From the NCBI RefSeq assembly GCF_001700505.1, contig NZ_MAPV01000013.1, positions 1-64,000 on the forward strand: DNA of 64,000 nucleotides. The letters are read 5' to 3'. Shown here one piece after another: positions 1,954 through 51,849 of the stretch. The notes below the pieces were generated by a model, which was not told where the DNA came from, searched no databases, and was given only the letters and a program-made list of their open reading frames with translations. The position numbers were made by a program, and so were the translations under genes. Source of the DNA: Streptomyces mutomycini. GTDB taxonomy: Bacteria > Actinomycetota > Actinomycetes > Streptomycetales > Streptomycetaceae. Numbering within the stretch: the first letter of the stretch is position 1; each line of letters starts with the position of its first letter.

Positions 1954-2138
1954 CCTGCGGGGGCCTTCGTTCCGGGCGGCTGCCCGGAACCGCGCTCTCC
2001 GTCGCCGGAGGATGCGGGGCCCGTACCAGGACTTCCTGCGCTCAACCATACGAAGAGCGACGCCCCAGACATAGAGTCGGCCGACCGGCACAAAGGGGAC
2101 CTTCGCCACACTCGACTCCCCGTCCTGTCGCGCATTCA

Positions 2139-2150
2139 TGACGGAAGTCA
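2139..2150. promoter_or_regulatory. Candidate operator TGACGGAAGTCA upstream of the enoyl-CoA hydratase
   Basis: The sequence TGACGGAAGTCA is a TGAC-N4-GTCA inverted repeat about 60 nt before the hydratase start. It matches 11 of 12 positions with the element at 8365-8376 between the divergent ligase and dehydrogenase genes. A possible -10 like GATAGC follows at 2160-2165. The two copies at promoters of the same pathway suggest one regulator, most simply the PaaX-like protein encoded at 5877-6698. The regulator assignment is inference. Confidence 0.5.
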
Positions 2151-2211
2151 CAGATCGGTGATAGCTTCGGAGTGCATCAGCAGCAGCCCGACGGCTGGAG
2201 GGGACCCTTCC

Positions 2212-3039
2212 ATGAGCCCGTTCACCGGCTCCGCCCCGCGCACGGAGCGCTGGGAGCATCTGCGCCTGACCACGGACGACGGCGTGGCGACCGTCACACT
2301 CGCCCGTCCCGAAAAGCTCAACGCACTCACCTTCGGCGCCTACGCCGACCTGCGCGACCTCCTCGCCGAGCTGTCCCGTGAACGCTCCGTGCGGGCCCTC
2401 GTGCTCGCCGGCGAAGGGCGCGGGTTCTGCTCCGGCGGTGACGTCGACGAGATCATCGGTGCCACGCTCGCGATGGACACCGCTCAGCTCCTGGACTTCA
2501 ACCGGATGACCGGACAGGTCGTGCGGGCCCTCCGGGAGTGCCCCTTCCCCGTGATCGCCGCCGTCCACGGGGTGGCGGCGGGCGCCGGGGCGGTCCTCGC
2601 CCTGGCCGCCGACTTCCGGGTCGCCGCCCCCTCCGCACGCTTCGCCTTCCTCTTCACCGCCGTCGGCCTGTCCGGCGGTGACATGGGCGCCGCCTATCTC
2701 CTGCCCCGTGTCGTCGGCCTCGGCCACGCCACCCGCATCCTCATGCTCGGCGAACCAGTCCGTGCCCCCGAGGCCGAGCGCATCGGGCTGATCAGCGAAC
2801 TGACCGGCGAAGGGGAGACCGGCATCCGCTCGGCCGCTCTGGCCAGACGGCTCGCCGACGGACCCGCCCTCGCCCTCGCCCAGACGAAGGCGCTGCTCAC
2901 CGCCGAGCTCGACATGCCTCTCGCCGCGTCCGTGGAGATGGACGCCGCCACCCAGGCCCTCCTGATGCACGGCGAGGACTACGCCGAGTTCCACGCGGCC
3001 TTCACGGAGAAGCGCCCGCCGAAGTGGCGGGGCAGGTAG
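2212..3039 (+). CDS. Enoyl-CoA hydratase/isomerase family protein
   Basis: A 275-residue crotonase-fold enzyme, expected to hydrate or rearrange an unsaturated CoA thioester. The N-terminal half carries LARPEKLNAL and the oxyanion-hole segment GEGRGFCSGGDVDEI (around residue 65). The second oxyanion and active-site loop is near GLSGGDMGAAYLLPRVVG (about residue 160). The ATG at 2212 follows GGAGGGGACC, a strong ribosome binding site, and gives normal family length. It lies 4 nt before the fused monooxygenase/reductase gene, so the two are co-transcribed. Homologous hydratases accompany the fused enzyme in the aerobic 2-aminobenzoyl-CoA clusters of Azoarcus evansii. The role in ring-cleavage or beta-oxidation steps here is inferred from context. 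Confidence 0.9.
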   Translation: MSPFTGSAPRTERWEHLRLTTDDGVATVTLARPEKLNALTFGAYADLRDLLAELSRERSVRALVLAGEGRGFCSGGDVDEIIGATLAMDTAQLLDFNRMTGQVVRALRECPFPVIAAVHGVAAGAGAVLALAADFRVAAPSARFAFLFTAVGLSGGDMGAAYLLPRVVGLGHATRILMLGEPVRAPEAERIGLISELTGEGETGIRSAALARRLADGPALALAQTKALLTAELDMPLAASVEMDAATQALLMHGEDYAEFHAAFTEKRPPKWRGR

Positions 3040-3043
3040 CACG

Positions 3044-5329
3044 ATGTCCTCCTCGGACACGGGGCGGATCGCGGTCATCGGCGGAGGACCCGGCGGGCTC
3101 TACGCCGCCGCCCTCCTCAAGCGGCTGCGCCCCGGCCGTGAGATCACCGTGTGGGAGCGCAACGCCCCCGACGACACCTTCGGATTCGGCGTCGTCCTCT
3201 CCGACGAGACTCTGGGCGGCATCGAGCACGCCGACCCCGTCGTGTACCGGGCGCTGAGCGACGCGTTCGTCCGCTGGGACACCATCGACGTCGTGCACCG
3301 GGGCGCTGTCCAGACCTCCGGCGGCCACGGCTTCGCCGCACTGGGCCGCCGCACGCTGCTCCGGATCCTGCACGAGCGCTGCGCATCCCTCGGCGTAGGG
3401 CTCCGCTTCCGGACCGGGGCGCCGCCCGCCGCGGAGCTCGCCGCCTGCCACGACCTGGTCATCGCCGCCGACGGTGTGCACAGCGCCACCCGTGAGGCCC
3501 ACGCCCGTCACTTCCGGCCCACGGTCACCGACCACCGCAACCGCTACATCTGGCTCGCCGCCGACTTCGCGTTCGACGCCTTCCGCTTCGAGATCGCCGA
3601 GACCGAGTACGGCGTGATGCAGCTGCACGCCTACCCCTTCGAAGGAGGCGCCTCCACCGTCATCGTCGAGATGCGCGAGGAGGTCTGGCGGGCGGCCGGG
3701 CTCGACACCTGCGACACCACGGAGTCCGCCGAGCGCTGCGCCAAGGTCTTCGCCGAGGCCCTCGGAGGCCGGCCGCTGCGGTCCAACAAGTCCTCCTGGC
3801 TCACCTTCGCCACCGTGAGCAACGCGCACTGGTCGCACGGCCGTACGGTCCTCATCGGCGACGCCGCGCACACCGCCCACTTCTCCATCGGCTCCGGCAC
3901 GAAGCTCGCCGTCGAGGACGCCCTCGCCCTGGCGGCCTGCGTCGAGGAACAGCCCGACCTGCCCACCGCCCTCGCAGCCTACGAGGCCGAGCGCCGCCCC
4001 GTCGTCCTGTCCACCCAGCGCGCCGCCGCGGCCAGCCTGCGCTGGTTCGAGGAACTCCCGGGCTACGTCGGCCAGCCGCCCCGGCGGTTCGCCTTCAACC
4101 TCCTCACCCGCAGCCGCCGCGTCACCCACGACAACCTGCGGCTGCGCGACGCCGGCTTCACGGGGGCGGTAGAGGAGGAGTTCGGCTGCCCGCCCGGCAC
4201 CCCGCCGATGTTCACCCCGCTGCGGCTGCGCGGCCTCGAACTCCGCAACCGTGTCGTCGTCTCACCCATGGACGTGTACTCCGCCGTCGACGGGATGCCC
4301 GGCGACTTCCATCTCGTCCACCTCGGCGCCCGCGCGCTCGGCGGCGCCGGTCTCGTCATGACCGAGATGGTCTGCGTCAGCCCCGAGGGCCGCATCACCC
4401 CCGGCTGCACCGGGCTGTGGACCGACGAACAGGCCGGTGCGTGGACCAGGATCACGCGCTTCGTCCACGAGTCCGCCCCCGGCGCCGCGATCGGCGTCCA
4501 GCTCGGCCACTCCGGCCGCAAGGGCTCGACCCGGCTCATGTGGGAGGGCATCGACCAGCCGCTGGACGAGGGCAACTGGCCGGTCAGCGCCGCCTCGCCC
4601 CTCCCGTACGCGCACGGTGTCAACCAGATCCCCCAGGCGCTGGACCGGACAGGGATGGACATGGTCCGGGACCGGTTCACCGAGGCCGCCCGACGGGCCG
4701 CCCGCTGTGGATTCGACCTCCTCGAACTGCACTGTGCCCACGGCTATCTCCTCTCCGGCTTCCTCTCCCCGCTCACCAACGTGCGCACCGACGCCTACGG
4801 CGGGTCCCTGGAGAACCGGCTCCGCTTCCCCCTGGAGGTCTTCGACGCGGTCCGTGCCGTGTGGACACAGGACCGGCCCATGACCGTACGGATCTCCGCG
4901 ACGGACTGGGCCCGGGGCGGCACGAGCGACGAGGACGCCGTGGCGATCGCCCGCGCCTTCGCCGCCCACGGCGCGGACGCCATCGACGTCTCCACCGGCC
5001 AGGTCGTCGCCGACGAACACCCCGAGTACGGCCGCTCCTACCAGGCCCCGTTCGCCGACCGGATCCGCAACGCACTGGACGTGCCCGTCATCGCCGTCGG
5101 TGCCATCTCCTCCTGGGACGACGTCAACTCGCTGCTGCTCGCCGGCCGGGCCGACCTCTGCGCCCTGGCCCGCCCGCACCTCTACGACCCGCACTGGACG
5201 CTGCACGCGGCGGCCGAACAGGGCTACACGGGGCCCGGCGTCTCCTGGCCGCTCCCGTACCGCGCGGGCAGCCGCACTCCGCCGACGGGCCGCACCGACG
5301 GCCCCAAGCCCCGGCTCACCCTCGACTGA
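3044..5329 (+). CDS. Fused FAD monooxygenase/OYE-type reductase (2-aminobenzoyl-CoA monooxygenase/reductase or salicylyl-CoA 5-hydroxylase type)
   Basis: A 761-residue two-domain flavoenzyme. Residues 1 to about 380 form a salicylate-hydroxylase-like FAD monooxygenase: IAVIGGGPGGLYAA near the N-terminus binds the ADP part of FAD, and LIGDAAHTAHFSIGSGTKLA around residue 270 is the second FAD motif. Residues about 388 to 750 form an Old Yellow Enzyme-type FMN reductase, starting at MFTPLRLRGLELRNRVVVSPM and including LLELHCAHGYLLSGFLSPLTN. This fusion is known from 2-aminobenzoyl-CoA monooxygenase/reductase of Azoarcus, which hydroxylates and then reduces the CoA-bound ring; related proteins are annotated as salicylyl-CoA 5-hydroxylase. 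The aryl-CoA ligase and RidA protein nearby favour an amino-aromatic substrate, which is inference. The gene is 4 nt downstream of the hydratase. Confidence 0.9.
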   Translation: MSSSDTGRIAVIGGGPGGLYAAALLKRLRPGREITVWERNAPDDTFGFGVVLSDETLGGIEHADPVVYRALSDAFVRWDTIDVVHRGAVQTSGGHGFAALGRRTLLRILHERCASLGVGLRFRTGAPPAAELAACHDLVIAADGVHSATREAHARHFRPTVTDHRNRYIWLAADFAFDAFRFEIAETEYGVMQLHAYPFEGGASTVIVEMREEVWRAAGLDTCDTTESAERCAKVFAEALGGRPLRSNKSSWLTFATVSNAHWSHGRTVLIGDAAHTAHFSIGSGTKLAVEDALALAACVEEQPDLPTALAAYEAERRPVVLSTQRAAAASLRWFEELPGYVGQPPRRFAFNLLTRSRRVTHDNLRLRDAGFTGAVEEEFGCPPGTPPMFTPLRLRGLELRNRVVVSPMDVYSAVDGMPGDFHLVHLGARALGGAGLVMTEMVCVSPEGRITPGCTGLWTDEQAGAWTRITRFVHESAPGAAIGVQLGHSGRKGSTRLMWEGIDQPLDEGNWPVSAASPLPYAHGVNQIPQALDRTGMDMVRDRFTEAARRAARCGFDLLELHCAHGYLLSGFLSPLTNVRTDAYGGSLENRLRFPLEVFDAVRAVWTQDRPMTVRISATDWARGGTSDEDAVAIARAFAAHGADAIDVSTGQVVADEHPEYGRSYQAPFADRIRNALDVPVIAVGAISSWDDVNSLLLAGRADLCALARPHLYDPHWTLHAAAEQGYTGPGVSWPLPYRAGSRTPPTGRTDGPKPRLTLD

Positions 5330-39490: not shown

Positions 39491-40963
39491 TCAGGCCTGC
39501 TTGGCGGCCTGCAGGGCCTCGATGGCCTTGCGGACACCCTCGCCGTAGGCCGGGTCGGCCTGCGTGCAGTGGCCGATGTGGCGCTCGATGGTGGCCTGGG
39601 AGGCACCGTCGATGGCCCGGGCGGTGTTGCCGAACAGGGCGTCCTGCTCCTCCGGCGTCATCCCCCGGAACAGGTTCCCCGGCTGCTCGAAGTAGTTGTC
39701 GTCGTCCTCGCGGTAGTCGAACCGGTCGGCCGCGGCACCGTCGAGCGCCAGGCCCGGCTCGGCGAACTGCGGCTGCTCCGCCCAGCGGCCGTAGCTGTTC
39801 GGGGTGTAGCCGGGCACGGCGCCCTGGTTGCCGTCCACGCGCAGCTGGCCGTCACGGTGGTAGGTGTTCACGTTCTTCGCGCCGCGGGGCTGGTTCACCG
39901 GGATCTGGTGGTGGTTGACACCCACGCGGTAGCGGGCGGCGTCACCGTACGAGAAGAGCCGGCCCTGCAGCATGCGGTCGGGCGAGGCGCCCACGCCGGG
40001 AACGAGGTTGGCCGGGGTGAAGGCGGCCTGCTCCACGTCGGCGAAGTAGTTCTCCGGGTTGCGGTTGAGTTCGAACTCGCCGACCTCGATGAGCGGGTAG
40101 TCCTTCTTGGACCAGACCTTGGTGAGGTCGAACGGGTGGTAGCGGTACGTCGCCGCGTCCGCCTCCGGCATGACCTGGATGTAGAAGGTCCACTTCGGGT
40201 GGTCGCCGCGCTCGATGGCGTCGAACAGGTCCGCCTGCGAGGACTCGCGGTCGTCGGCGACGACCGCGGCGGCCTCCGCGTCGGTCAGGTTCTTGATGCC
40301 CTGCTGCGTACGGAAGTGGAACTTCACCCAGAAACGCTCGTTGCTCTCGTTGATGAACGAGTAGGTGTGCGAGCCGAAGCCGTGCATGTGGCGGTAGCCG
40401 TCGGGGATGCCGCGGTCCGACATCACGATGGTGATCTGGTGCAGGGCCTCGGGAAGGTTGGTCCAGAAGTCCCAGTTGTTCTCCGCCGAGCGCAGGTTGG
40501 TGCGCGGGTCGCGCTTCACGGCGCGGTTCAGGTCGGGGAAGTGGTGGGGGTCGCGGTGGAAGAACACCGGCGTGTTGTTGCCGACGACGTCCCAGTTGCC
40601 CTCCTCGGTGTAGAAGCGGAGGGCGAAACCGCGGATGTCGCGCTCCGCGTCCGCCGCGCCGCGCTCACCGGCGACGGTCGAGAACCGGGCGAAGAGCTCG
40701 GTCTCCTTGCCGACCTCGGAGAAGAGCGCGGCCCTGGAGTAGCGGGTGATGTCCTGCGTCACCTTGAAGGTGCCGAAGGCGCCGGATCCCTTGGCGTGCA
40801 TACGGCGCTCAGGGATGACCTCGCGGCTGAAGTGCGCCAGCTTCTCCAGGAACCAGACGTCCTGGAGAAGCATCGGGCCGCGCGGGCCGGCCGTGACGGC
40901 GTTCTCGTTGTTCGCGACCGGCGCGCCGGCGGCAGTGGTCAGCGGCTTCGTGTTGTCAGAAAT
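39491..40963 (-). CDS. Monofunctional heme catalase, apparent ATT start codon
   Basis: A 490-residue clade-type catalase that breaks down hydrogen peroxide. [13 protein letters not shown] holds the essential His56, [14 protein letters not shown] holds the distal Asn, and [23 protein letters not shown] holds the proximal heme Tyr. Family N-termini (S[15 protein letters not shown]) are encoded up to [20 protein letters not shown]. The codon before them is ATT at 40963-40961, set 7 nt after GGAGGAG. No in-frame ATG, GTG or TTG exists between that site and ATG at 40873, which would remove 30 conserved residues. So ATT seems to be the start. It follows catR by 25 nt and is probably its main target. 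Confidence 0.93.
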
Positions 40964-40988
40964 TTTCCTGCTCCTCCGTGTGAAAACT

Positions 40989-41435
40989 TCAGTGCACCGA
41001 CTCCGGATCCAGCTGACCGCGCTCGGTCCGACATCCGGGGCACAGGCCCCAGTACGTCACCTCTACGTGGTCGACGGTGAACCCGTGATCATGGGGCGCC
41101 TCGAGGCGCGGAGAGCCCTGCGGGGCATCGACGTCGGCGATCGTGCCGCAGGAGCGGCAGACCACGTGCTGATGGTTGTCCCAGGACTGCCCCTCGTACC
41201 GTGCCGGGGAATTCGGCAGGTCGATCCGCCGCGCCAGGCCGGCGTCGACAAGCGTCTTGAGTACGTCGTAGACGGCTTGGGTCGAGACCGCTCCGATGCG
41301 TGTGCGTACCAGGGTGAGGAGGGTACTGACATCGGAGTGCGGGGCCTCGTGGACCGCCGAGAGCACGGCGACCCTGGGGCGGGTCACTCGCAATGACGCT
41401 CCGCGCAGGAGGGTCCTGGCCTCGGTTTCGATCAC
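40989..41435 (-). CDS. catR: Fur-family peroxide-responsive repressor (CatR/PerR type)
   Basis: A 148-residue Fur-family regulator. The winged helix occupies residues about 10-80 ([55 protein letters not shown]). The metal/regulatory segment includes [18 protein letters not shown] and the C-terminal CPGC, the two CxxC pairs of structural zinc sites. In Streptomyces coelicolor CatR, a PerR-like repressor, lies just upstream of the catalase gene catA; this arrangement is the same. The start is GTG at 41435. A perfect palindrome 22 nt upstream (41457-41469) is a likely autoregulatory operator. Gene symbol rests on context plus family. Confidence 0.88.
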
Positions 41436-41469: not shown

Positions 41470-41596
41470 ATCAATGGGGGAGCGAAGTCCCGGGGCATCG
41501 CCATCCGGCGCACCCCGGGTGCTCGTGGCCCGGGACCGCCCACGCGATGTCCGATTCCCGCCAGCGCGGCTCCTTGCGATGCCGCACCCTGGAGGC

Positions 41597-43123
41597 ATGA
41601 CCAGCGACGACAGCAGATACGAGGCGGTGACCAGCCGCGATGCCCGGTTCGACGGAGAGTTCTTCTTCGCCGTGTCCACGACCGGCATCTACTGCCGCCC
41701 GAGCTGTCCCGCCACCACGCCCCGCCGCCGGAACGTGACGTTCTTCCCCACCGCGGCCGCCGCCCAGAACGGCGGGTTCCGCGCCTGCCGGCGCTGCCGC
41801 CCCGACGCGGTCCCCGGCTCCGCCGGCTGGAACGTGCGCGCGGATCTCGTGGGCCGGGCGATGCGGCTCATCGGCGACGGGGTCGTCGACCGCGAAGGCG
41901 TCGCAGGGCTGGCCGCACGCCTCGGATACAGCGCCCGCCAGGTGCAGCGCCAGCTGAACGCCGAGGTCGGAGCGGGGCCCATCGCGCTCGCCCGCGCCCA
42001 GCGGGCCCACACCGCGCGCGTCCTGCTGCAGACCACCTCGCTCCGGGCCGCGGAGATCGCGTTCGCCGCGGGCTTCGCCAGCGTGCGGCAGTTCAACGAC
42101 ACGGTGCGGGAGATCTACGCGCTCACCCCGGGCGAGCTGCGCGCCGCCCGCCCCGGCCGGGCCTCCCGTTTCGGCTCCGCCGGCATCGCGGACGGTGCCG
42201 GGGGAGTGCCGCTGCGGCTCGCCCACCGGGGTCCGTACGCCGCCGTCGAGGTCTTCGACCACCTCGCGGCCCGTGCTCTCACCGGCATCGAGGAGATCGT
42301 CGGCGAGCGGGGCGACCGCACCTACCGGCGGACCCTGAGCCTGCCCCACGGCACAGGCATCGCCGAGGTCCGCGAGAGGACCGGCGAGGGATGGCTGGAA
42401 TGCAGACTGCACCTGGACGATCTGAGCGATCTGACGACCGCCACCCAGCGGATGCGCCGTCTCTTCGACCTCGACGCCGACCCCCACGCCGTCGCCGAGC
42501 GCCTCGGCACGCATCCCGCACTGGCCCGGCTCGTCACCCGTACGCCGGGGCTGCGTGCACCGGGCGCCGCCGACGTTCACGAACTGACCGTCCGGGCGGT
42601 CCTCGGGGAGCAGGGCTCCCCGGCGGCCGGGCGCCGGCTCGGCAGTGCGCTGGTGACGGCGTACGGCGCGCCGCTCCGGGCGCCCAGCGGCGGCCTCACC
42701 CGGACGTTCCCCGAATCCGCCGTCCTGGCCGAGGCGGGTCTGGAGGCGCTCGGGATGCCGGACTCGCGGCGGGCCGCCCTGCGTGGCCTCGCCGCGGCCC
42801 TCGCCGAGGGCCGGATCCGCCTGGACCCGGGCGCTGACCGGGACAGGGCCGAGAAGGAGTTGCTCGGCCTGCGGGGTGTCGGGCCCCGGACGGCCGGATA
42901 CGTCCGGATGCGGGCGCTCGGCGACCCCGACGTGCTGCTGACCGGCGATGCGGCGGTCGGCGCCGGGATGCGGCACGTGGGTGCCGAGGCGGTGGACGCC
43001 GAGGCATGGCGCCCCTGGCGCACGTACGCCATGCACCACTTCTGGAACGTGGCGGCCGACCGGCGCCGCACCGCTTCGGCGGGACGGATCAGGACGACGA
43101 CATCGGAAGGACCCATACGATGA
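41597..43123 (+). CDS. Ada-AlkA fusion: methylphosphotriester sensor with 3-methyladenine DNA glycosylase
   Basis: A 508-residue alkylation-repair protein. Residues about 10-75 form the Ada zinc domain with Cys33, Cys37, Cys64 and Cys67 (GIYCRPSCPATTPRR, FRACRRCRPDAVPG); Cys33 aligns with the methyl-accepting Cys38 of E. coli Ada. An AraC-type HTH follows (LAARLGYSARQVQRQLNAEVG, then AAEIAFAAGFASVRQFND). From about residue 185 an AlkA domain begins, with the helix-hairpin-helix LLGLRGVGPRTAGYVRM and the nearby catalytic Asp in GDPDVLLTGDAAVG. The ATG at 41597 follows GGAGGC. It can sense methylation, activate its own operon and excise damaged bases. ATGA overlap leads into ogt. Confidence 0.93.
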   Translation: MTSDDSRYEAVTSRDARFDGEFFFAVSTTGIYCRPSCPATTPRRRNVTFFPTAAAAQNGGFRACRRCRPDAVPGSAGWNVRADLVGRAMRLIGDGVVDREGVAGLAARLGYSARQVQRQLNAEVGAGPIALARAQRAHTARVLLQTTSLRAAEIAFAAGFASVRQFNDTVREIYALTPGELRAARPGRASRFGSAGIADGAGGVPLRLAHRGPYAAVEVFDHLAARALTGIEEIVGERGDRTYRRTLSLPHGTGIAEVRERTGEGWLECRLHLDDLSDLTTATQRMRRLFDLDADPHAVAERLGTHPALARLVTRTPGLRAPGAADVHELTVRAVLGEQGSPAAGRRLGSALVTAYGAPLRAPSGGLTRTFPESAVLAEAGLEALGMPDSRRAALRGLAAALAEGRIRLDPGADRDRAEKELLGLRGVGPRTAGYVRMRALGDPDVLLTGDAAVGAGMRHVGAEAVDAEAWRPWRTYAMHHFWNVAADRRRTASAGRIRTTTSEGPIR

Positions 43124-43142
43124 CAAGGACCCATACGATGAC
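43107..43142 (+). repeat. Perfect 18-bp tandem duplication carrying RBS and start codon of ogt
   Basis: AAGGACCCATACGATGAC occurs twice back to back (43107-43124 and 43125-43142). Each copy holds an AAGGA site and an ATG, both in the ogt frame because 18 is a multiple of three. The first ATG overlaps the ada-alkA stop codon as ATGA. The second adds six codons fewer to ogt. Confidence 0.95.
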
Positions 43143-43659
43143 ACTGATGAAGACGCTTTACACCACGGTGGACAGCCCGCTGGGCGAACTGCTGCTGGCC
43201 GGCGAGAAGTCGGCCACCGCACCGGGCGGCACCGCCCTGGCCTCACTCTCCGTGCCCGGCCAGAAGGGCGGCGCTACGGTCCAGGACGACTGGACCGAGA
43301 GCGCGGAGTCGTTCACCGCGATCGCCGCCGAACTGCGAGCGTACTTCGACGGCAGCCGGACCGGCTTCGGCATCGAGTACGCCGCCGGGCGCGGCACCGA
43401 CTTCCAGCGGCGGGTGTGGACCGCCCTGGAGGCCATTCCGTACGGCACCACGCTCAGCTACGGCGAGATCGCTGCGCGGATCGGCGCGCCGCGCGCCGCG
43501 GTGCGCTCGGTGGGCACCGCGATCGGCGCCAACCCGCTGCTGGTCGTGCGCCCATGCCACCGCGTGATCGGCGCGAGCGGAGCCCTGACCGGGTATTCGG
43601 GCGGCCTCGACCGCAAGCGGCAGCTGCTGGACCTGGAGAACCGCCGCCAGGAGGCGTGA
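43120..43659 (+). CDS. ogt: Methylated-DNA--protein-cysteine S-methyltransferase
   Basis: A 179-residue O6-alkylguanine repair protein. The active-site motif VVRPCHRVIGASG includes Cys146, the methyl acceptor. FQRRVWTALEAIPYGTTLSYGEIAARIGAPRAAVRSVG (from about residue 95) is the DNA-binding helix-turn-helix with the Arg finger region. Three in-frame ATGs are possible: 43120, 43138 and 43147. The first two come from an 18-bp duplication. Homologues start near MKTLYTTVDSPLG, so true translation may begin at 43138 or 43147; the first is listed for full reach. It forms an adaptive-response unit with ada-alkA and alkB. Confidence 0.93.
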   Translation: MTRTHTMTLMKTLYTTVDSPLGELLLAGEKSATAPGGTALASLSVPGQKGGATVQDDWTESAESFTAIAAELRAYFDGSRTGFGIEYAAGRGTDFQRRVWTALEAIPYGTTLSYGEIAARIGAPRAAVRSVGTAIGANPLLVVRPCHRVIGASGALTGYSGGLDRKRQLLDLENRRQEA

Positions 43660-43753
43660 CGGCCCCGGGCCGATCGACCGCCAAGATGTCCGGAAAGCAA
43701 CCCCGTTGGCAGGAGAGTCCCCCCATGAAAACCTCCACCGGCGACACCTCCCC

Positions 43754-44410
43754 ATGAACGCCCTGATCCCGCGTCCCGCCATGGAGGTCGCCCCGGGAGC
43801 ATGGCACGTGCCCGGCTGGCTCGGCACCGCGCAGCAGCGGGAGCTGGTGACGGCCTGTCGCGCCTGGGCCACCGGGCCCGTCCCGATCCGGCACACCCGC
43901 CTGCCGCGCGGCGGCGTCATGTCCGTTCAGACCGTCTGCGTCGGCTGGCACTGGCGACCGTACGAATACACCCGCACGGCGGACGACGTGAACGGCCGGC
44001 GGGTCGCCGATTTCCCGGACTGGCTGGTCCGGCTGGGACGCCGCGCCCTGCTGGAGGCGTACGGCGACGAGGAGGCCGCGCGGGACTACACGCCGGACAC
44101 CGCGCTCATCAACTTCTACGACGGGCAGGCCAGGATGGGCATGCACCAGGACAAGGACGAGCGGTCGTCCGCCCCGGTTGTTTCCCTGTCCGTCGGCGAC
44201 ACCTGTGTCTTCCGGGTGGGCAACACCGAGACCCGCACCAAGCCGTACACCGACATCGAACTCTCCTCGGGCGACCTCTTCGTCCTCGGCGGCCCCTCAC
44301 GGTTCGCGTACCACGGGGTGCCCAGGGTCCACGAAGGCACCGGCGACCCGGCCACCGGGCTGCGCTCGGGGCGGCTGAACATCACGATGCGGGTCACCGG
44401 GCTCGCGTGA
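43754..44410 (+). CDS. alkB: Alpha-ketoglutarate-dependent DNA repair dioxygenase AlkB
   Basis: A 218-residue Fe(II)/2-oxoglutarate dioxygenase that removes methyl groups from 1-methyladenine and 3-methylcytosine. MGMHQDKDE gives His131 and Asp133, FAYHGVPRVHEG gives His187, and LRSGRLNITMRVTG supplies the Arg residues for 2-oxoglutarate; the spacing matches E. coli AlkB. ALINFYDGQARMG is the conserved strand before the HxD motif. ATG at 43754 follows a weak purine run; it is separated from ogt by 94 nt, so it may be in the same transcript. A 20-bp tandem repeat starts at its stop codon. Confidence 0.95.
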   Translation: MNALIPRPAMEVAPGAWHVPGWLGTAQQRELVTACRAWATGPVPIRHTRLPRGGVMSVQTVCVGWHWRPYEYTRTADDVNGRRVADFPDWLVRLGRRALLEAYGDEEAARDYTPDTALINFYDGQARMGMHQDKDERSSAPVVSLSVGDTCVFRVGNTETRTKPYTDIELSSGDLFVLGGPSRFAYHGVPRVHEGTGDPATGLRSGRLNITMRVTGLA

Positions 44411-44573: not shown

Positions 44574-45077
44574 TTGTCGCATTGGGAGAGGTCGAGCACG
44601 GCACGGGTGGTACCACCCGCGCGGCCGCGCAAGCTCGCCAAGGTTCCGTTCGTCGAGCTGGCCGACGGGCGTCTGCAGGGTGTGGTGTCCAGTGGCTCGG
44701 ACATCGGGCGGGTCTATGTGTCGTCCGTCGCCACGGGCACCTTCGCGTTCGCCTGCAGCACCAACAACAACCGGCCCTGCGGCGGGGCGCACGGATCGTT
44801 CTGCAACCACATAGGTGCTCTGATCAACGAAGCGGTCCTGCAGTACGGCGCCCCGCGCGTCGTCCGGTATCTGAAGGCCGACGCCCCGGAGGGGGACACG
44901 GACGGTGCCGGGCTGGCCTCGGCCATGAGGAGCACCCGTCCGCAGGCTGACACGACGAAGGCCGCCGCGTCCGTCTTCAGCCGGTTCCTGCGTCACCTGG
45001 CCTATCTCGAACACGCTCCGGTCACGGCGCCGTTGCCCGAGATGCAGTTCTTCCCGCCGACCCGGGCGGTGGCGTGA
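44574..45077 (+). CDS. Small Cys/His-cluster protein of a MoxR-VWA operon (SWIM-like)
   Basis: A protein of about 167 residues, first in a five-gene operon. It opens with SHWERSSTARVVPPARPRKLAKVPFVELADGRLQG and then has a putative metal site ACSTNNNRPCGGAHGSFCNH, spaced Cys-x7-Cys-x7-Cys-x-His (Cys61, Cys69, Cys77, His79). This resembles, but does not exactly match, the SWIM pattern CxCxnCxH. The C-terminus is helical, including ASVFSRFLRHLAYLEHAPV. TTG at 44574 is chosen because GGGAG lies 8 nt before it; ATG at 44559 is an option without such a site. The stop overlaps the next start. SWIM-like proteins commonly neighbour MoxR/VWA genes. Confidence 0.7.
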   Translation: MSHWERSSTARVVPPARPRKLAKVPFVELADGRLQGVVSSGSDIGRVYVSSVATGTFAFACSTNNNRPCGGAHGSFCNHIGALINEAVLQYGAPRVVRYLKADAPEGDTDGAGLASAMRSTRPQADTTKAAASVFSRFLRHLAYLEHAPVTAPLPEMQFFPPTRAVA

Positions 45078-46468
45078 TGCGCGCCGACCTGCTCGCCGGA
45101 CCCGTAGAAGGACTGGACGAAGCCCTGGAGGCCGTCGACGCCTTCGACCAGGCCCTCGTCGCGGGCCTGCTCCGTCCCCAGCCCGCCGGGACCGCCGGCC
45201 CGACACGGCTCGCCGACGCCGTGCTGGGGACGCCACTGGCAGCCGGAGTCGCCGAGGCGGCCGCGAAGGCGGCGGCCGGAGCGGCGGGTGAGGACCACTT
45301 CGTGGCCCTGGCCGCCGCACGGACCGCACTGCACGGCTCGGTCCACGACGCCCTGCTGACCCGTGTCGACGAGGCGGCCGGACGTCAGCGCGGTGCGGAC
45401 GTGGTCCCGGTGGCCGCCGGGCAGCCGACGGCCAATCTGCTGACGGCCGCCCGCGCCTGGCTGTCCGACCTGGCGCGCTGCGGATGGCAGGGGCTCGACC
45501 ACGAGGTGGTGTCCGGGGCGGCGGAGGTCGTCTCCGCGATGCTTCCCGACCCGTCCCTGCGCCGTCTGGCCACGCTTCTCGACGGCTTCGCCGCCGAACT
45601 CGCCGCTTCCTGCCCCGGTGCGTCGCTCGAGCGTTTTCCCCTGCGTCGCTGGGGAGACCTCTGGTCGCGCGGGATGCTGCTGACGGTTCCCGGCGCTGCA
45701 GTCGCGCCGGTCACCGGTACCGCCGACGGACGTCTGCTGCCCCTCGGCATCGACGTGACCGAGCACGCGACCGCCGCACAGGCTCAGGTGCACGCGGTGT
45801 TCGAGCCCGCTGACGGCTCGGCGCCCCGGCTCGTGCGCGCCAGTGTGTCGGTTCCCAAGCCCGACACGGTCGTCGGGGCCGGGATCTGGCAGCTGATGCG
45901 CCCGCACATGTCGCTCCTCGCCGCCGCCGGTGAGGGCTGCTCGATGGATCTCACCGGTATGCCGGTCACCGCGGAGGGCGACCTCGTCTGGAGCGACGAG
46001 CACGCACGTCCCGGGGAGCCGGCGGAGGCGTTCGCCACCGCACGCGTGGCCCTGCCCACCGCGACCGCCCCGGTGACAGCGCCTCTTGACCGGCATCCGG
46101 CACGCATCGCCGTACCCGTCTTCCTGGAGGGCTACACCACCCGGACGGATGACGAGGGCCGGCTGACCTTCACCGTCGCCGGGCTCGACCTGGTCGTCGA
46201 CACCGACCGCATACCGGCCGCCGGTCCCCTCACACCCGAGGCCGTCGCCAAGTCCGGCGCGTGCATCGGGCTGATCCGCTGGGACGCCGGTTCGTTCGGC
46301 GTGCAGCCCCTCGCCGTCGAGACCACGGTGCGGAAGAAGGTGACCGCGGTGCACGCCGGGGCGTGGGCCGGAGGGACGACGGACAAGGCCGGAGCCAGGG
46401 CGGAGAAGGCCGCCACCGACGCCGCGAAGGTGCTGAGCGAGCGCGCGGGAAGGCTGCTGCGGAAATGA
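45074..46468 (+). CDS. Unassigned protein of the MoxR-VWA operon
   Basis: A 464-residue soluble protein, no signal and no membrane helices. I cannot assign a known domain. The first 250 residues look helical, with Ala/Leu-rich stretches; residues about 190-440 show alternating strand patterns (RASVSVPKPDTVVGAGIWQLMRPH, TFTVAGLDLVVDTDRIP). The C-terminal 40 residues are Ala/Lys-rich and helical. GTG at 45074 overlaps the stop of the preceding gene, and the stop overlaps the VWA gene, so it is translationally coupled on both sides. Large unassigned proteins of this kind are typical adaptors or targets in MoxR-VWA modules. Function unknown. Confidence 0.75.
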   Translation: MMRADLLAGPVEGLDEALEAVDAFDQALVAGLLRPQPAGTAGPTRLADAVLGTPLAAGVAEAAAKAAAGAAGEDHFVALAAARTALHGSVHDALLTRVDEAAGRQRGADVVPVAAGQPTANLLTAARAWLSDLARCGWQGLDHEVVSGAAEVVSAMLPDPSLRRLATLLDGFAAELAASCPGASLERFPLRRWGDLWSRGMLLTVPGAAVAPVTGTADGRLLPLGIDVTEHATAAQAQVHAVFEPADGSAPRLVRASVSVPKPDTVVGAGIWQLMRPHMSLLAAAGEGCSMDLTGMPVTAEGDLVWSDEHARPGEPAEAFATARVALPTATAPVTAPLDRHPARIAVPVFLEGYTTRTDDEGRLTFTVAGLDLVVDTDRIPAAGPLTPEAVAKSGACIGLIRWDAGSFGVQPLAVETTVRKKVTAVHAGAWAGGTTDKAGARAEKAATDAAKVLSERAGRLLRK

Positions 46469-47889
46469 CCGGACAACAGAGTTCCGAGGTGACCGCGGAG
46501 ACCTCGCACGACAACCGCCGCCAGGTCATGTACTGGCGCCTCCTCGCCCGGCTCTTCGACCACGAGGAGCAGGCGGCCCTGGAATCAGCGAGCCTCGCCG
46601 TGGTCGAGGACATCGGCCTGCCGGCCAAGCTGCTCGATCCGCAGGCGTCGGTCGACTCCGTGGTGCAGCGCCATCCCGAACTGGCCGCCGAGTTCGACGG
46701 TCTGATGGTGCCGGAGGACGAGACCGATGGTGAAGCAGCGGACGGCGACACCCGCGACCGGGCCGCCGAGGTGCGGCGCGCCGCGCTCGTGTCGAAGGTC
46801 CTGCTGAACGTCTTCCACTCCCCGCCCGGCACCGTCACCGCGGGACAGCTGTCCCGGTGGCAGTCCGACGCCGGCTGGCTGGAGCGCTCGCTCGGCTGCA
46901 GGCCAGGGGAGCTGCGCGGCGGACGCGCCGGAGGAACGGGCGTCAGCCCGACAGGTACGGGAGGCGGCGGCCGTACGCCCGACCTGAGCCGGCTCATCCC
47001 GGAGATCGGCCCGGAGCTCGGCTCCATCGAGGCCGGGCTCGTCAAGCGCATGCGGCTGCGCGAAGTGCTCGCCGATCCACAGCTGGCCGGGCAGCTGACG
47101 CCGAGCATGTCGCTGATCGAACAGCTGCTGCGCGACAAGGACAACCTGTCCGGTGTGGCCCTGGCCAACGCCAAGGCGCTGATCCGCCGCTTCGTCGACG
47201 AGGTCGCCGAGGTGCTGCGTACGCAGGTGGAGAAGTCGACAGTCGGTGCCCTGGACCGCTCGGTCCCGCCGAAGCGGGTGTTCCGCAACCTGGACCTCGA
47301 CCGCACCATCTGGAAGAACCTCACCAACTGGAGCCCCGAAGAGGAACGGCTCTACGTGGACCGCCTCTTCTACCGCCACACCGCCCGCAAGACGACGCCG
47401 CAGCGGCTGATCGTGGTCGTCGACCAGTCGGGCTCGATGGTGGACTCGATGGTCAACTGCACCATCCTCGCCTCGATCTTCGCGGGCCTGCCCAAGGTGG
47501 ACGTCCACCTCATCGCGTACGACACCCAGGCACTCGACCTCACCCCGTGGGTGCACGACCCGTTCGAGACCCTGCTGCGCACCAACCTCGGGGGCGGCAC
47601 CGACGGCACGGTCGCCATGGCACTGGCCCAGCCGAAGATCGCCGAGCCGCGCAACACGGTCGTGGTGTGGATCTCGGACTTCTACGAATGGCAGACCGAG
47701 CCCCTGTTCGAGAGCATGGCCGCCATCCACCGCTCCGGCGCCAAGTTCATCCCCGTCGGCTCCGTGACCAGCTCCGGCCGCGCCAGTGTCAACCCGTGGT
47801 TCCGGGAGCGTTTCAAGGACCAGGGGACTCCGGTGCTCTCCGGACACATCCGCAAGCTCGTCCACGAGCTCAAGACCTTCCTCACCTGA
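46465..47889 (+). CDS. VWA-domain protein partnering a MoxR ATPase
   Basis: A 474-residue protein. Residues about 300-470 form a von Willebrand A domain with the full metal-ion site: LIVVVDQSGSMVDSM (Asp320, Ser322, Ser324), the Thr in NLGGGTDGTVAMALA and the Asp in VVVWISDFYEW. The N-terminal 300 residues are helical (YWRLLARLFDHEEQAALESASLA) with a Gly-rich hinge near residue 155. ATG at 46465 overlaps the previous stop. In MoxR systems the VWA protein binds the ATPase hexamer and delivers substrate. It is separated from the MoxR gene by 55 nt. Confidence 0.9.
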   Translation: MTGQQSSEVTAETSHDNRRQVMYWRLLARLFDHEEQAALESASLAVVEDIGLPAKLLDPQASVDSVVQRHPELAAEFDGLMVPEDETDGEAADGDTRDRAAEVRRAALVSKVLLNVFHSPPGTVTAGQLSRWQSDAGWLERSLGCRPGELRGGRAGGTGVSPTGTGGGGRTPDLSRLIPEIGPELGSIEAGLVKRMRLREVLADPQLAGQLTPSMSLIEQLLRDKDNLSGVALANAKALIRRFVDEVAEVLRTQVEKSTVGALDRSVPPKRVFRNLDLDRTIWKNLTNWSPEEERLYVDRLFYRHTARKTTPQRLIVVVDQSGSMVDSMVNCTILASIFAGLPKVDVHLIAYDTQALDLTPWVHDPFETLLRTNLGGGTDGTVAMALAQPKIAEPRNTVVVWISDFYEWQTEPLFESMAAIHRSGAKFIPVGSVTSSGRASVNPWFRERFKDQGTPVLSGHIRKLVHELKTFLT

Positions 47890-47944
47890 AGCCCCTCGGC
47901 TCCGGTGCAGTCGAACCCAAAATTCTCAGAAAGGCTCCACACAC

Positions 47945-49057
47945 ATGTCCGACCTGTTGCGCGCCCCCGCCGAGATCAAGTACGCCGAGGAGCTCGACTG
48001 GCTCGAGTCGGTCGACGACGGCCCCAAGCCCTTCTCCTGGCGGCTGTCGCCGAAGATGGTCCGCCTGTTCATCCTGGGATCCGAGCGCTCCGACGGCCTC
48101 GACCGGGAGATCTCCCAGAAGTGGTACGGCGACCGCAGCTTCGTCGAGCGCTCCATCGTCACGCTGGCCTCCGACCGGGGCCTGCTGCTCATCGGTGACC
48201 CGGGCACGGGCAAGAGCTGGCTGGCGGAGCTGCTGTCCGCCGCCATATCCCGTAACTCCACCCTCGTGGTGCAGGGCACGGCCGGCACCACCGAGGACCA
48301 CATCAAGTACTCCTGGAACGTGTCCATGGTGATCTCCAAGGGCCAGTCGCGGGAGTCGATGATCCCCTCACCGATCATGACCGCGATGGAGACCGGGGCG
48401 ATCGGCCGTTTCGAGGAACTCACCCGTTCCACCAGCGACGTCCAGGACGCACTGATCTCGATCCTGTCGGAGAAGTACATCTCGGTCCCGGAGATGGACA
48501 GCGACAACATCGTCTTCGCCAAGCCGGGCTTCTCCGTCATCGCCACGGCCAACAGCCGCGACCGGGGAGTCAACGACCTGTCGTCCGCGCTGAAGCGCCG
48601 CTTCAACTTCGTCCGCATCCCGGTGGTGACGAACAAGAAGAGCGAGGCGGAGATCGTCCGCTTCCGCACCGAGGAACTGCTGCGCCGCCACCAGATCGAG
48701 CTGGACGTGCCGCCGACCCTGCTCGACGTACTGCTGCAGAGTTTCGCCGACCTGCGGGCCTCCGCCGCGGCCGCCGGCAGCGACGACGAGAAGCTGGAGT
48801 CCGCCCTGTCGAGCGCCGAGCAGATCGGTGTGCTGGAGGACGCGATCCTGCACAGCAACTTCTTCGGCGAACGCGCTCTGACCGCCCGCACGCTGGCCTC
48901 CTCCCTCGTCGGATCGCTGGCACGGCGCGAGCCCGAGGACCTGGCCATCCTCAACAAGTACCTGCACGGCGTCGTCGAGCCCCGCAGCAAGGAAGAGGGC
49001 GGCTCCTGGCCGGAGTTCCTGGAGGGCGGCCGCGACGCGATCGCCACCCTGTCATGA
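47945..49057 (+). CDS. MoxR-type AAA+ ATPase
   Basis: A 370-residue AAA+ protein. Walker A is GDPGTGKSW at residues 84-92 with Lys90. In place of the usual Walker B (hhhDE) the aligned segment reads AIGRFEELTRSTSDVQDALISILSEK. Sensor 1 is VIATANSRDRG, and ALKRRFNFVRIPV contains the arginine finger. The C-terminal lid has FFGERALTARTLASSLVGSLAR. Such ATPases remodel partner proteins; the VWA protein next door is the expected partner. The ATG at 47945 is preceded by AGAAAGG. The stop overlaps the next start by 4 nt. Confidence 0.9.
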   Translation: MSDLLRAPAEIKYAEELDWLESVDDGPKPFSWRLSPKMVRLFILGSERSDGLDREISQKWYGDRSFVERSIVTLASDRGLLLIGDPGTGKSWLAELLSAAISRNSTLVVQGTAGTTEDHIKYSWNVSMVISKGQSRESMIPSPIMTAMETGAIGRFEELTRSTSDVQDALISILSEKYISVPEMDSDNIVFAKPGFSVIATANSRDRGVNDLSSALKRRFNFVRIPVVTNKKSEAEIVRFRTEELLRRHQIELDVPPTLLDVLLQSFADLRASAAAAGSDDEKLESALSSAEQIGVLEDAILHSNFFGERALTARTLASSLVGSLARREPEDLAILNKYLHGVVEPRSKEEGGSWPEFLEGGRDAIATLS

Positions 49058-51849
49058 GCGCCCCGGACGAGGGCACGCCCTTCGAGGCGCTGCGAGGCCA
49101 ACTGCAGGACGCGGCGACGGAGTTCGCCGACGGCCCGGACGCATTGCAGGGCATCCTCCTCGGCATCGTCGACGACGTCGACCGCGCGGTGCGCGAGCCG
49201 CTGGAGATCTTCCCCGTCTGCCACCACTCACCCGCGTCAGCGGTCGCCATGGCACGGCGGCTGCGCGAGAAGCAGCCGAAGGTGGTGTACCTGGAGCTGT
49301 GCGAGGACATGGCGCCCCTCCTGCCCGAGCTCCGCAACTGCCGTCTGCCGGTGGCCGTCCAGGCGTTCGCGAGCGACGTCAAGGGCTTCCCCGCGGAATG
49401 GGCACCCCTGTCGGTCGTCGCCCCGATCACCGAGGCGTCGGCCGAATACCAGGCCATCGCCTACGCACTGGACACCCCGGGTGTCGAGCTGGTCCTCGTC
49501 GACCGTTCCTCGGACCACGTGTTCCAGTGGCAGGCGGGCGACAAGGAGCCCACCGGTCCGGACGACCGGCCCGCGGAGGAGGAGGCGGCGCTGCACGGCG
49601 ACGCCGTCGGGGTGGAGATCGGTGACCTGAGGCCCCGCTTCGCCGAACTCGAGGAGCACCTCCTGCACCACGGTCGCGTGCGGCACTGGTCGGAGTGGTG
49701 GCACCAGTACGTCGAGCTGCCGCTCGGCGACAGCGACCACGACACCTACCGCCAGGTCATGCTCCTGATCGGCAGCCTCTTCCGCCGTCTGGCCCCCGGG
49801 GACACCGGCCGGGTCCGGGTGGACGAGGACCGCGAGCGCTACATGTGGACGCGGATGCGCGAGCACCTCGCCGCGACCGGCACCGATCCCGGGGACTGCC
49901 TCTACGTCTGCGGTGCCTTCCACGCGTCCAGCCGCGTCGAGGAGTTCGGTGTCCACGGCAGCGACACCTTCGAGATCACTCCGCCGAGCGAGAGCACCTG
50001 GCAGCACGGCCTGATCCCGTCCAGCCACGCGGCGATCGAGGCACAGTTCGGCCTCGCCGCCGGGTCCGTCTCCATCGCCGCCACCCAGTGGGCGAAGAAC
50101 CTCAGGCGCACCAGGGTGCAGCCCTTCCGGCTCGCGGGTCAGGCGGGCGCGAAGAAGGCGGCGAAACCGGGGAGGGCCGCAGCGGCGGCCGTCCCCGTGG
50201 CACCGGAAGCACCCTCCGACAAGCTCTCCGGCTTCCTGCAGAGCCCGCCGGCCCTCGACCGGCTGGACGAGGCCGAACTCCTCGGCTGGTCGGTGGAGAT
50301 CGTGCGCTCCGCCCGCCGCAACGGCTATCTCGCCTCCACCGCCGACGCCATCGCCGTGTTCGAGACGTCGATCCTGCTGGCCGGCATGCGGGACCGGGCC
50401 AGGCCCACCCCGTACGACTTCCAGGACGCGGCGGTCACCTGCATCGAGAAGGAGACCGTGCCGGGCAGGCGCGATGTGCGCCGCCTCGTGGAGATCCTGA
50501 TGGGCGGCGACCGGATCGGCCAGGTCGGCTACGACGCGCTGCCGCCCCTCGCCCGGGACGTGCACGACCGCCTCGCCCCACTCGGCCTCAAGCTCCAGCA
50601 GCGCGGCGTCCGGCGGGCTCTGCTGGACATGACCACCCAGCCTGAACTGCGGCAGTGCTCCGATGTGCTGTGGATGCTGCGCCACCTGATGCCGCACGGT
50701 GCCGCGAGGCCGATCATGGGTGAGCGGGAGCTCGGCAAGCAGTCGGCGCAGGAGTCCTGGGACCTTGCGCTGGGCACACACCAGAGGGCGCTCATCGAGC
50801 TCGGTTACGAGGGCGTCAGCATCGAGCAGGTCCTGGAGCAGCGCCTGCGCCGCGCCGCCTACGCCCCGAACGCCACCACGGCGCAGGTACTCGGAGCCGT
50901 CGAGGACGCCGTGCTGCATCTGCGCAGCGGCCGCCTCGCCGACGAGCTCGGCACCCGAGCCCTGGAGGTGCTGGCCACCGAGCGCAGCGTCGACGGGGCG
51001 CCGGAGGTCCTGCGGAGGGTGCGCCGGCTCCTGGCGTACTACCGGATCAGCCGACCGGTGCTGCCGTCGTGGATCGAGTCGTTCGCCAAGACGGGTTACG
51101 CGCACTACTGCACGCTCCTGCCGACGGCGTTCACCGACGAGGACGCGACCGTGCGGCAGGTCGCCGCGATGCTGGGATTCCTCTTCAGCATGGAGAGCCT
51201 GGCCCTGTCGCTCGGCTGCGACCGGACCCAGCTGGATCTGGCCTTCGCACAGTCGCATCCGCGGGAGCCCTCCAGGGTGGCACTGCTGTGGGCGGCCCAG
51301 GTGCAGCTCGGACAGCTGTCCCGGGCCGAGCTGCGGCAGCGGTGCGACGGTCTGCTGGCCGACCCGCTGGTGGTGCCCGCATACCCGCGCTATCTCAGCG
51401 GATTCCTGCACGCGCTGGAGCCGGTGCCACAGCTGGCCGACTTCGTCGTGGAGGCGGTCTCGAATGCCTTCGCACGGCTCCCGGATCCGGTGCTGCTGCC
51501 CTGGCTGCCGAAGCTGATCACCACCCTGCGGTCCGAGGGCGCCGATCTGGCCCCGTTGCTCATCCGTGAGGCCGGCCGGGTCTTTCCGGGCCGGCTCGCG
51601 ACGCTGGACACCTGGGTCCCACCGTGGCAGGCCGTCCCGCAAGCGCCTGCCGAGCCGGCTCCCGGGGGCGCCACGGCAGGCCGCGCGGTCCTGCTCACCG
51701 CCCACCCGGAGACGTGCGACAGCCTTGCGGAACTGCTGGGCTGGGAGGGCGCCTGGGAGGCGGAGGCGGCGGAACCTTCGGGGGCGGTACTGGTCGGCCG
51801 GTACCCGGAGACAGCGGTGGCACTGGATGCGCTGCTGACGGGAGCATGA
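49054..51849 (+). CDS. DUF5682-like large protein of the MoxR-VWA operon
   Basis: A 931-residue soluble protein. The N-terminal 300 residues look like an EreA/ChaN-type fold: EIFPVCHHSPASAVAMARRL with CHHSP at residues 56-60, then KVVYLELCEDM with acidic residues, and CLYVCGAFHASSRV with His290. These His/Glu sets suggest a metal-dependent or hydrolytic site. Residues about 380-870 are helical, HEAT-like, with repeated LxxLL-type segments. The short C-terminal part (VLLTAHPETCDSLAELLGWEGAWEAE) is distinct. The call as DUF5682 rests on layout next to VWA and MoxR genes and on the CHHSP and GAFHAS motifs. ATGA overlap connects it to MoxR. Activity is unknown. Confidence 0.8.
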   Translation: MSAPDEGTPFEALRGQLQDAATEFADGPDALQGILLGIVDDVDRAVREPLEIFPVCHHSPASAVAMARRLREKQPKVVYLELCEDMAPLLPELRNCRLPVAVQAFASDVKGFPAEWAPLSVVAPITEASAEYQAIAYALDTPGVELVLVDRSSDHVFQWQAGDKEPTGPDDRPAEEEAALHGDAVGVEIGDLRPRFAELEEHLLHHGRVRHWSEWWHQYVELPLGDSDHDTYRQVMLLIGSLFRRLAPGDTGRVRVDEDRERYMWTRMREHLAATGTDPGDCLYVCGAFHASSRVEEFGVHGSDTFEITPPSESTWQHGLIPSSHAAIEAQFGLAAGSVSIAATQWAKNLRRTRVQPFRLAGQAGAKKAAKPGRAAAAAVPVAPEAPSDKLSGFLQSPPALDRLDEAELLGWSVEIVRSARRNGYLASTADAIAVFETSILLAGMRDRARPTPYDFQDAAVTCIEKETVPGRRDVRRLVEILMGGDRIGQVGYDALPPLARDVHDRLAPLGLKLQQRGVRRALLDMTTQPELRQCSDVLWMLRHLMPHGAARPIMGERELGKQSAQESWDLALGTHQRALIELGYEGVSIEQVLEQRLRRAAYAPNATTAQVLGAVEDAVLHLRSGRLADELGTRALEVLATERSVDGAPEVLRRVRRLLAYYRISRPVLPSWIESFAKTGYAHYCTLLPTAFTDEDATVRQVAAMLGFLFSMESLALSLGCDRTQLDLAFAQSHPREPSRVALLWAAQVQLGQLSRAELRQRCDGLLADPLVVPAYPRYLSGFLHALEPVPQLADFVVEAVSNAFARLPDPVLLPWLPKLITTLRSEGADLAPLLIREAGRVFPGRLATLDTWVPPWQAVPQAPAEPAPGGATAGRAVLLTAHPETCDSLAELLGWEGAWEAEAAEPSGAVLVGRYPETAVALDALLTGA

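What the first reader, a model, noticed from the sequence alone, without database searches (positions are those of the whole stretch)
44574..51849. Five-gene MoxR-VWA system with Cys/His protein and EreA/ChaN-like DUF5682 effector
Overlapping genes encode a Cys-His metal protein, an unassigned 464-aa protein, a VWA protein with complete metal site, a MoxR ATPase with an atypical Walker B (RFEEL) and a 931-aa protein with CHHSP, ELCEDM and GAFHAS motifs plus HEAT-like helices. MoxR-VWA modules have been proposed as NTP-dependent conflict or stress systems, yet the role of this set is undefined. It could be a defence or protein-remodelling machine in which DUF5682 is the enzyme.
Basis: partly seen in the sequence, partly recalled or inferred. 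Interest (0 to 1): 0.75.

Follow-up and report, generated by a model that had tools for sequence, protein, structure and literature searches.

The report
Accessory MoxR-VWA-DUF5682 gene cassette in Streptomyces
Five overlapping bacterial genes form a portable cassette in which an ATP-driven protein-remodelling pair probably controls a hydrolase-like protein (DUF5682); it is a new branch of an uncharacterised gene family also found in E. coli (yehL-M-P-Q), and what it protects against or acts on is unknown.

Summary
Five same-strand genes (44574-51849) encode a small Cys3His protein (SW), a 464-aa orphan (X), a CoxE-type VWA protein, a MoxR ATPase and a 931-aa DUF5682 protein (D). The five occur in the same order in all 78 loci complete enough to show them; flanking genes are not conserved. 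DUF5682 membership is confirmed (143.6 bits against a profile built here; N-terminal part 63.9 bits against Pfam). The cassette is one of four branches of MoxR-VWA-DUF5682 modules: the same genome also carries the core branch (SWIM/DUF5691), and E. coli yehLMPQ represents another. The 'atypical' Walker B (RFEEL) is normal for the family. The His-Glu-His motifs are conserved in all branches and resemble the TIKI (EreA/ChaN/TraB) superfamily, but that link is only suggestive. X has no known family; its model (pLDDT 78) shows a helical domain and two OB-like barrels. SW and X are fused in some genomes; in another branch DUF5682 and VWA are fused. The cassette is patchy, favours chromosome arms and occurs on plasmids, but flanking defence genes are rare. 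Best guess: the MoxR-VWA motor gates or remodels D, with SW-X as recognition subunit. Defence is possible but unproven. New variant of a known, uncharacterised kind.

The parts
44574..45077 (+). SW: 167-aa Cys3His protein, SWIM-like
   Evidence: Invariant C-x7-C-x7-C-x-H in 23 relatives; no Pfam match, SWIM included; fused to X in L049, L052, L112; TTG start with shared RBS
44754..44810 (+). Putative metal-binding motif C61, C69, C77, H79 of SW
45074..46468 (+). X: 464-aa orphan subunit, N-terminal helical domain and two OB-like barrels
   Evidence: No Pfam, NCBIfam, PADLOC or PDB sequence match; AF2 model pLDDT 78.2, pTM 0.79
45710..46021 (+). OB-like barrel 1 of X (residues 213-316; strands 1-3, helix, strands 4-5)
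   Evidence: DSSP of the model; weak OB-fold neighbours
46109..46318 (+). OB-like barrel 2 of X (residues 346-415)
   Evidence: DSSP of the model
46465..47889 (+). VWA protein, CoxE type, 474 aa
   Evidence: PF05762 E=1.1e-28; start corrected from 46261
47422..47436 (+). MIDAS DQSGS of the VWA domain
   Evidence: DxSGS in 81/81 proteins
47945..49057 (+). MoxR AAA+ ATPase, 370 aa
   Evidence: PF07728 E=7.3e-37; start corrected from 47786
48194..48217 (+). Walker A GDPGTGKS
48407..48421 (+). Walker B RFEEL, normal for this family
   Evidence: Same EE motif in all branches and in E. coli YehL
49054..51849 (+). D: 931-aa DUF5682 protein, putative TIKI-like hydrolase domain plus alpha-solenoid
   Evidence: 106.8 bits to PF18934, 63.9 bits for the N-terminal part, 143.6 bits to a profile built here, hhalign 99.7%
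49219..49242 (+). Motif 1 of D, CHHSPASA (H57)
   Evidence: Invariant in 56; RHHxP in the other branches
49288..49308 (+). Motif 2 of D, YLELCED (E81)
49912..49926 (+). Motif 3 of D, GAFHA (H290)

Best explanation
The set is an accessory, horizontally mobile version (here 'branch B') of the MoxR-VWA-DUF5682 module, the family of E. coli yehL-yehM-yehP-yehQ. SHOWN: one co-inherited five-gene unit; homology of MoxR, VWA and D to the other branches; conserved ATPase and metal-site residues and a conserved His/Glu/His set in D. INFERRED: MoxR forms a hexamer into whose pore the VWA protein is inserted, as in NorQD. ATP hydrolysis twists the VWA protein and so remodels its bound client, which is D. 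D's N-terminal domain is a TIKI-like hydrolase (peptide or ester bonds) held inactive on its alpha-solenoid until it is remodelled. SW-X is the recognition subunit: a small zinc-type knuckle and two OB-like barrels that may bind nucleic acid or a protein-nucleic acid complex and deliver the trigger or the substrate. The accessory distribution makes a conflict or stress role more likely than a housekeeping one.
For: Five genes in fixed order in 78/78 loci, with no conserved neighbour. The X and D genes occur in the same genomes in two separate surveys. D is DUF5682 along its length. The motif triad is kept in all branches. DUF5682 and VWA are one polypeptide in another branch, which places D next to VWA. 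SW and X are fused in L049, L052 and L112. MoxR tree: branch B is its own clade, 100/100. Patchy in Streptomycetaceae, 52/150, while the core branch is in all 12 Streptomyces genomes sampled. On plasmids. 21/29 copies lie within 20% of a chromosome end, p=4e-4. OB-like topology of X and OB/ssDNA-binding neighbours in two libraries. The finger-in-pore mechanism is shown for NorQD (PMC13036017).
Against: No activity, substrate or phenotype is known for any member; the papers searched contain no functional study. TIKI kinship is not statistically established and D's N-terminal model is poor. OB matches are individually insignificant (best PDB match of that fold E=0.33). Protein conservation is very high (MoxR mostly 85-98%), unlike fast-evolving defence sensors. 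Defence genes are rare in the flanks.
Confidence: 0.5

Rival explanations
1. Maturation chaperone: the MoxR-VWA pair inserts a metal or cofactor into a client enzyme, as NorQD, CoxDE and RavA-ViaA do; D and SW-X are adaptor subunits rather than effectors.
For: The VWA is CoxE type and all well-studied relatives do this (PMC7159879 section 8; PMC13036017). A Cys3His protein could carry metal.
Against: No metalloenzyme or other client gene is conserved next to the five genes in 80 loci; the client, if there is one, seems to be inside the cassette (DUF5682-VWA fusion).
Confidence: 0.2
2. Dedicated anti-phage or anti-plasmid defence system in which infection triggers D to cleave a cellular or phage protein.
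For: Patchy and mobile distribution; MoxR-vWA pairs are recruited into conflict systems (PMC7159879; PMC12839542); OB-like barrels could sense foreign nucleic acid.
Against: No strong PADLOC match for any of the five proteins; few defence genes among 138 flanking proteins, mostly one kinase; very slow protein evolution; not in phage or viral collections.
Confidence: 0.25
3. Stress or DNA-damage protein-remodelling system with a conserved endogenous target, spread horizontally because it is useful in soil.
For: High conservation argues for a constant host target. Its close kin have an alkylation-repair cluster next door. DUF4132 sits with MoxR-DUF5682-VWA in the E. coli-like branch, and a DUF4132 gene is strongly upregulated on depletion of the DNA-damage repressor DdrO in Deinococcus (PMC8533742).
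Against: The repair neighbours are found in only about 4 of 80 loci, and the DUF4132 gene itself is absent from this branch.
Confidence: 0.3
4. D is a catalytically dead scaffold and the MoxR-VWA pair simply assembles a structure with it.
For: The first Glu of the TIKI 2His/2Glu set is missing (V55/C56 in its place; the set is described in PMC6254334); no activity has been shown.
Against: The remaining His, Glu and His are conserved in all four branches across distant bacteria, as expected of an active site.
Confidence: 0.2

Closest known systems
E. coli K-12 yehL-yehM-yehP-yehQ (MoxR, DUF5682, VWA, SWIM), with yehI (DUF4132) upstream
   Same: Same MoxR, DUF5682 and VWA families (42%, 29% and 33% identity); a Cys/His-knuckle protein in the set
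   Different: The E. coli set has a true SWIM protein of 614 aa and DUF4132; here there is a SWIM-like small protein plus the orphan X; gene order differs
Core actinobacterial SWIM / DUF5691 / MoxR-DUF5682-VWA cluster (own genome, G000:C360, L003)
   Same: Same three core families (MoxR 44%, VWA 30%, D 30% identity); co-resident in the same genome
   Different: Has DUF5691, which X does not match; found in all 12 Streptomyces genomes sampled and next to sucCD-like genes, not accessory
MoxR-vWA ternary conflict systems (VMAP, iSTAND, FtsH, beta-propeller; PMC7159879)
   Same: MoxR plus MIDAS-bearing VWA plus a further partner
   Different: None of their third components; only 12.8 bits to bpMoxR, below its cut-off of 27; DUF5682 and SWIM are not mentioned in that paper
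NorQ-NorD, CoxD-CoxE, RavA-ViaA
   Same: MoxR-VWA motor; CoxE-type VWA domain
   Different: Their clients are respiratory or metal enzymes that are not part of the MoxR-VWA unit; here DUF5682 is part of the cassette
TIKI superfamily (TraB/PrgY, ChaN, EreA, RRSP)
   Same: Order and spacing of GxxH, E and GxxH motifs; sub-threshold Pfam matches on those motifs
   Different: No significant sequence match to EreA relatives; first catalytic Glu missing; long alpha-solenoid added

Membership tests
DUF5682 (PF18934) | Score above the curated cut-off of 26 bits | tested here: met
   106.8 bits in the genome search; 63.9 bits for residues 43-339. The full-length hmmscan listed nothing, taken as a filter artefact, since a profile built here gives 143.6 bits over residues 47-820 with default filters
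MoxR-VWA-DUF5682 module (yehLMP family) | MoxR, VWA and DUF5682 genes adjacent and homologous to YehL, YehP and YehM | tested here: met
MoxR AAA+ of this family | Walker A, EE-type Walker B, conserved ATAN/RD sensor region and RRF motif | tested here: met
VWA, CoxE type (PF05762) | Score above cut-off and complete MIDAS | tested here: met
   100.6 bits against 26.4; DxSGS and SD in 81/81, T loop LGGGTDG in 60/81
SWIM zinc finger (PF04434) | CxC-x(n)-CxH motif and a Pfam match | tested here: not met
   SW has C-x7-C-x7-C-x-H and no Pfam match at E<=10; E. coli YehQ scores 31.5 bits and the core-branch protein 18.3. SWIM-like at most
DUF5691 | X homologous to DUF5691 | tested here: not met
   hhalign probability 0.2%
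C-terminal part of YehQ-type SWIM proteins | SW-X homologous to YehQ along its length | tested here: inconclusive
   Similar total length and domain order, but hhalign not significant
TIKI superfamily (EreA/ChaN/TraB) | 2His/2Glu active site on a parallel beta-sheet fold | tested here: inconclusive
   Three of four residues by motif; sub-threshold Pfam matches; hhalign with EreA relatives E about 0.2; N-terminal model pLDDT about 35
MoxR-vWA ternary conflict systems | VMAP, iSTAND, FtsH-like or beta-propeller third component | tested here: not met
   No such domain in any of the five proteins
Known or candidate anti-phage systems (PADLOC 2.0) | Strong match of the system's proteins to PADLOC models | tested here: not met
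   Best matches TerY E=4e-4 for VWA and mad8 E=1e-5 for MoxR, generic domain similarity; none for SW, X, D
OB-fold nucleic-acid-binding proteins | Significant fold match and nucleic-acid binding | tested here: inconclusive
   Correct strand-helix order twice; RPA70, SSB and HIN and LEF-3 and DUF669 among the neighbours, none below E=0.001; binding not testable here

The most novel reading that the evidence does not exclude
The cassette is an ATP-gated protease of a type not yet described: SW-X senses single-stranded nucleic acid or a stalled complex through two OB-like barrels, and the MoxR-VWA motor then unlocks a TIKI-family protease (DUF5682). The E. coli yeh operon would work on the same principle.
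Probability: 0.2. Interest if true: 0.8.

Novelty: new variant of a known kind. Interest (0 to 1): 0.5.

Why it matters
DUF5682 modules occur in E. coli K-12, Deinobacterium, Actinobacteria and a gut-bacterial contig, yet I found no paper that gives any of them a function. The branch seen here is compact, self-contained and portable, with its recognition subunit split off, so it is a tractable entry point: five genes that can be moved into a laboratory strain and tested. A MoxR-VWA motor that carries its own hydrolase-like client would extend a chaperone class known mostly for cofactor insertion.

Tried and rejected
(1) X as DUF5691: rejected. (2) SW-X as a split YehQ: attractive by length and order, but not significant in any profile comparison. 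(3) SW as a true SWIM finger: motif and Pfam test failed. (4) Walker B as a special feature: rejected. (5) AlphaFold of D to show the EreA/ChaN site: N-terminal half unusable, mean pLDDT 50, so its fold search speaks only for the solenoid. (6) EreA-family profile comparison: not significant, although the weak alignment has the expected register. A ChaN survey found no members in 60 actinobacterial genomes, and a TraB survey too few for a profile. (7) Phage carriage: the one 'phage' record, MT835988, is a bacterial contig; none in viral contigs. (8) Defence island: 138 flanking proteins from 17 loci gave mainly one kinase and a few mad-type matches; no control set was run. One search failed on the server.

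Full report
WHAT IS THERE. Five genes on the + strand fill 44574-51849. Junction sequences show 4-bp GTGA/ATGA overlaps between SW and X, X and VWA, and MoxR and D, and a 55-bp gap before MoxR. The first ORF uses TTG at 44574 behind a GGAGA site that its relatives share. The VWA and MoxR ORFs were over-extended by first-start calling: conservation begins at 46465 and 47945.

CO-INHERITANCE. A scan of 84,980 species genomes found 328 stretches with a relative of D; the best 80 were fetched. In 78 of them all five genes lie in the same order. The other two are contigs too short to hold the missing genes. No further gene family is conserved beside them. D and X were surveyed separately in overlapping genome samples, and the genomes of the window's genus with a strong D match also have an X match.

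WHAT THE PROTEINS ARE. MoxR: AAA_5, E=7e-37; VWA: CoxE type, E=1e-28. D belongs to DUF5682: 106.8 bits in the genome search, 63.9 bits for the N-terminal 297 aa, 143.6 bits over residues 47-820 against a profile built from the other branches, and hhalign 99.7% over 720 columns. The full-length hmmscan against Pfam listed nothing, which I take as a filter artefact. SW has an invariant C-x7-C-x7-C-x-H motif but is not a Pfam SWIM finger. X has no match in Pfam, NCBIfam, PADLOC or PDB sequences.

FOUR BRANCHES. The window's genome also has a core cluster with SWIM, DUF5691, MoxR, DUF5682 and VWA genes at G000:C360. Comparing loci gives branch A (that core cluster), branch E (E. coli-like: DUF4132, MoxR, DUF5682, VWA, SWIM; E. 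coli K-12 itself), branch C (MoxR plus a fused DUF5682-VWA protein) and branch B (the window). A MoxR tree makes A, B and C each one side of a well-supported branch; branch E was not recovered as a single group, and long branches limit deeper reading. Branch A is in all 12 genomes of the window's genus that were sampled, branch B in 52 of 150 of its family, a count that includes a few weak, possibly spurious matches, and in 6 of 296 of its phylum.

ACTIVE-SITE MOTIFS. All branches keep [RC]H[HL]xP, E in the second motif, and G[AG][FWY]H. Of the TIKI 2His/2Glu set (PMC6254334), three of four residues have counterparts. Scans of isolated N-terminal parts gave weak non-DUF5682 Pfam matches; two of the three are TIKI members and both lie on the right motif: TraB E=0.21 on the first motif of the window protein, and ChaN E=0.037 on the last motif of a branch E protein. 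The third, a carbohydrate-binding module on YehM (E=0.005), shows how loosely such matches should be read. Profile comparison with EreA relatives was not significant, and the model of D is poor in this half. TIKI kinship is therefore likely by motif but not established.

X AND SW. The model of X (mean pLDDT 78.2, pTM 0.79) has an N-terminal helical domain and two units of strand-strand-strand-helix-strand-strand, the order of an OB fold. Fold searches returned no significant match, but OB-fold proteins recur among the neighbours: RPA70, human SSB, HIN domains and bacterial toxin B subunits in PDB, and LEF-3 and DUF669 among viral models. That these neighbours are OB-fold proteins is my own knowledge, not a tool label. 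SW and X are one ORF in L049, L052 and L112.

MOBILITY. The cassette is patchy; it lies within 20% of a chromosome end in 21 of 29 near-complete genomes (p=4e-4; approximate lengths); it is on plasmids of Streptomyces fungicidicus, S. cadmiisoli and Embleya; and its D tree mixes Pseudonocardiales with Streptomycetaceae. Flanking proteins are ordinary regulators, dehydrogenases and transporters, with few PADLOC matches. A defence-island context is therefore not supported.

HOW IT MOST LIKELY WORKS. MoxR-VWA pairs act by inserting a VWA finger into the MoxR pore and transmitting force to a client (PMC13036017; general scheme in PMC7159879). Because DUF5682 is fused to VWA in branch C, D is the best candidate client. 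D then is a hydrolase-like effector gated by the motor, and SW-X the recognition subunit. Shown: the gene set, the homologies, the motifs and the fusions. Inferred: complex formation, catalysis, nucleic-acid binding, and any biological role. The searched literature has no functional study of DUF5682, DUF5691 or the yeh genes.

LIMITS. X and D alignments are shallow (about 70-93% identity), which weakens profile comparisons and folding. The fold library of cellular predicted structures was not available. No control was run for the flank scan.

Noticed in passing
window 41474-44410: DNA alkylation-repair cluster directly upstream: Ada-AlkA fusion (41474-43123), Ogt-type methyltransferase (43006-43659), AlkB-like protein (43706-44410). 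It is next to the cassette only in the closest relatives.
   Followed up: partly
window 39491-41435: Catalase gene beside a Fur-family regulator gene, on the strand opposite to the repair cluster.
   Followed up: no
L003 3545-5632 and 5921-13914 (G000:C360): The core branch A cluster of the same genome lies next to sucC-sucD-like genes.
   Followed up: partly
L197 (MT835988.1) 253-4879: A record labelled 'Bacteriophage sp.' carries a MoxR-DUF5682-VWA module and looks like a bacterial gut contig, not a phage.
   Followed up: yes
L158, L159, L160: Branch C fuses DUF5682 and VWA into one protein of roughly 1,220 aa or more, next to a MoxR gene; an even more compact, unstudied version.
   Followed up: partly
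window 49054-51849: Full-length hmmscan of D against Pfam reports nothing although its N-terminal part alone scores 63.9 bits for DUF5682; such proteins may be missed by annotation pipelines.
   Followed up: yes
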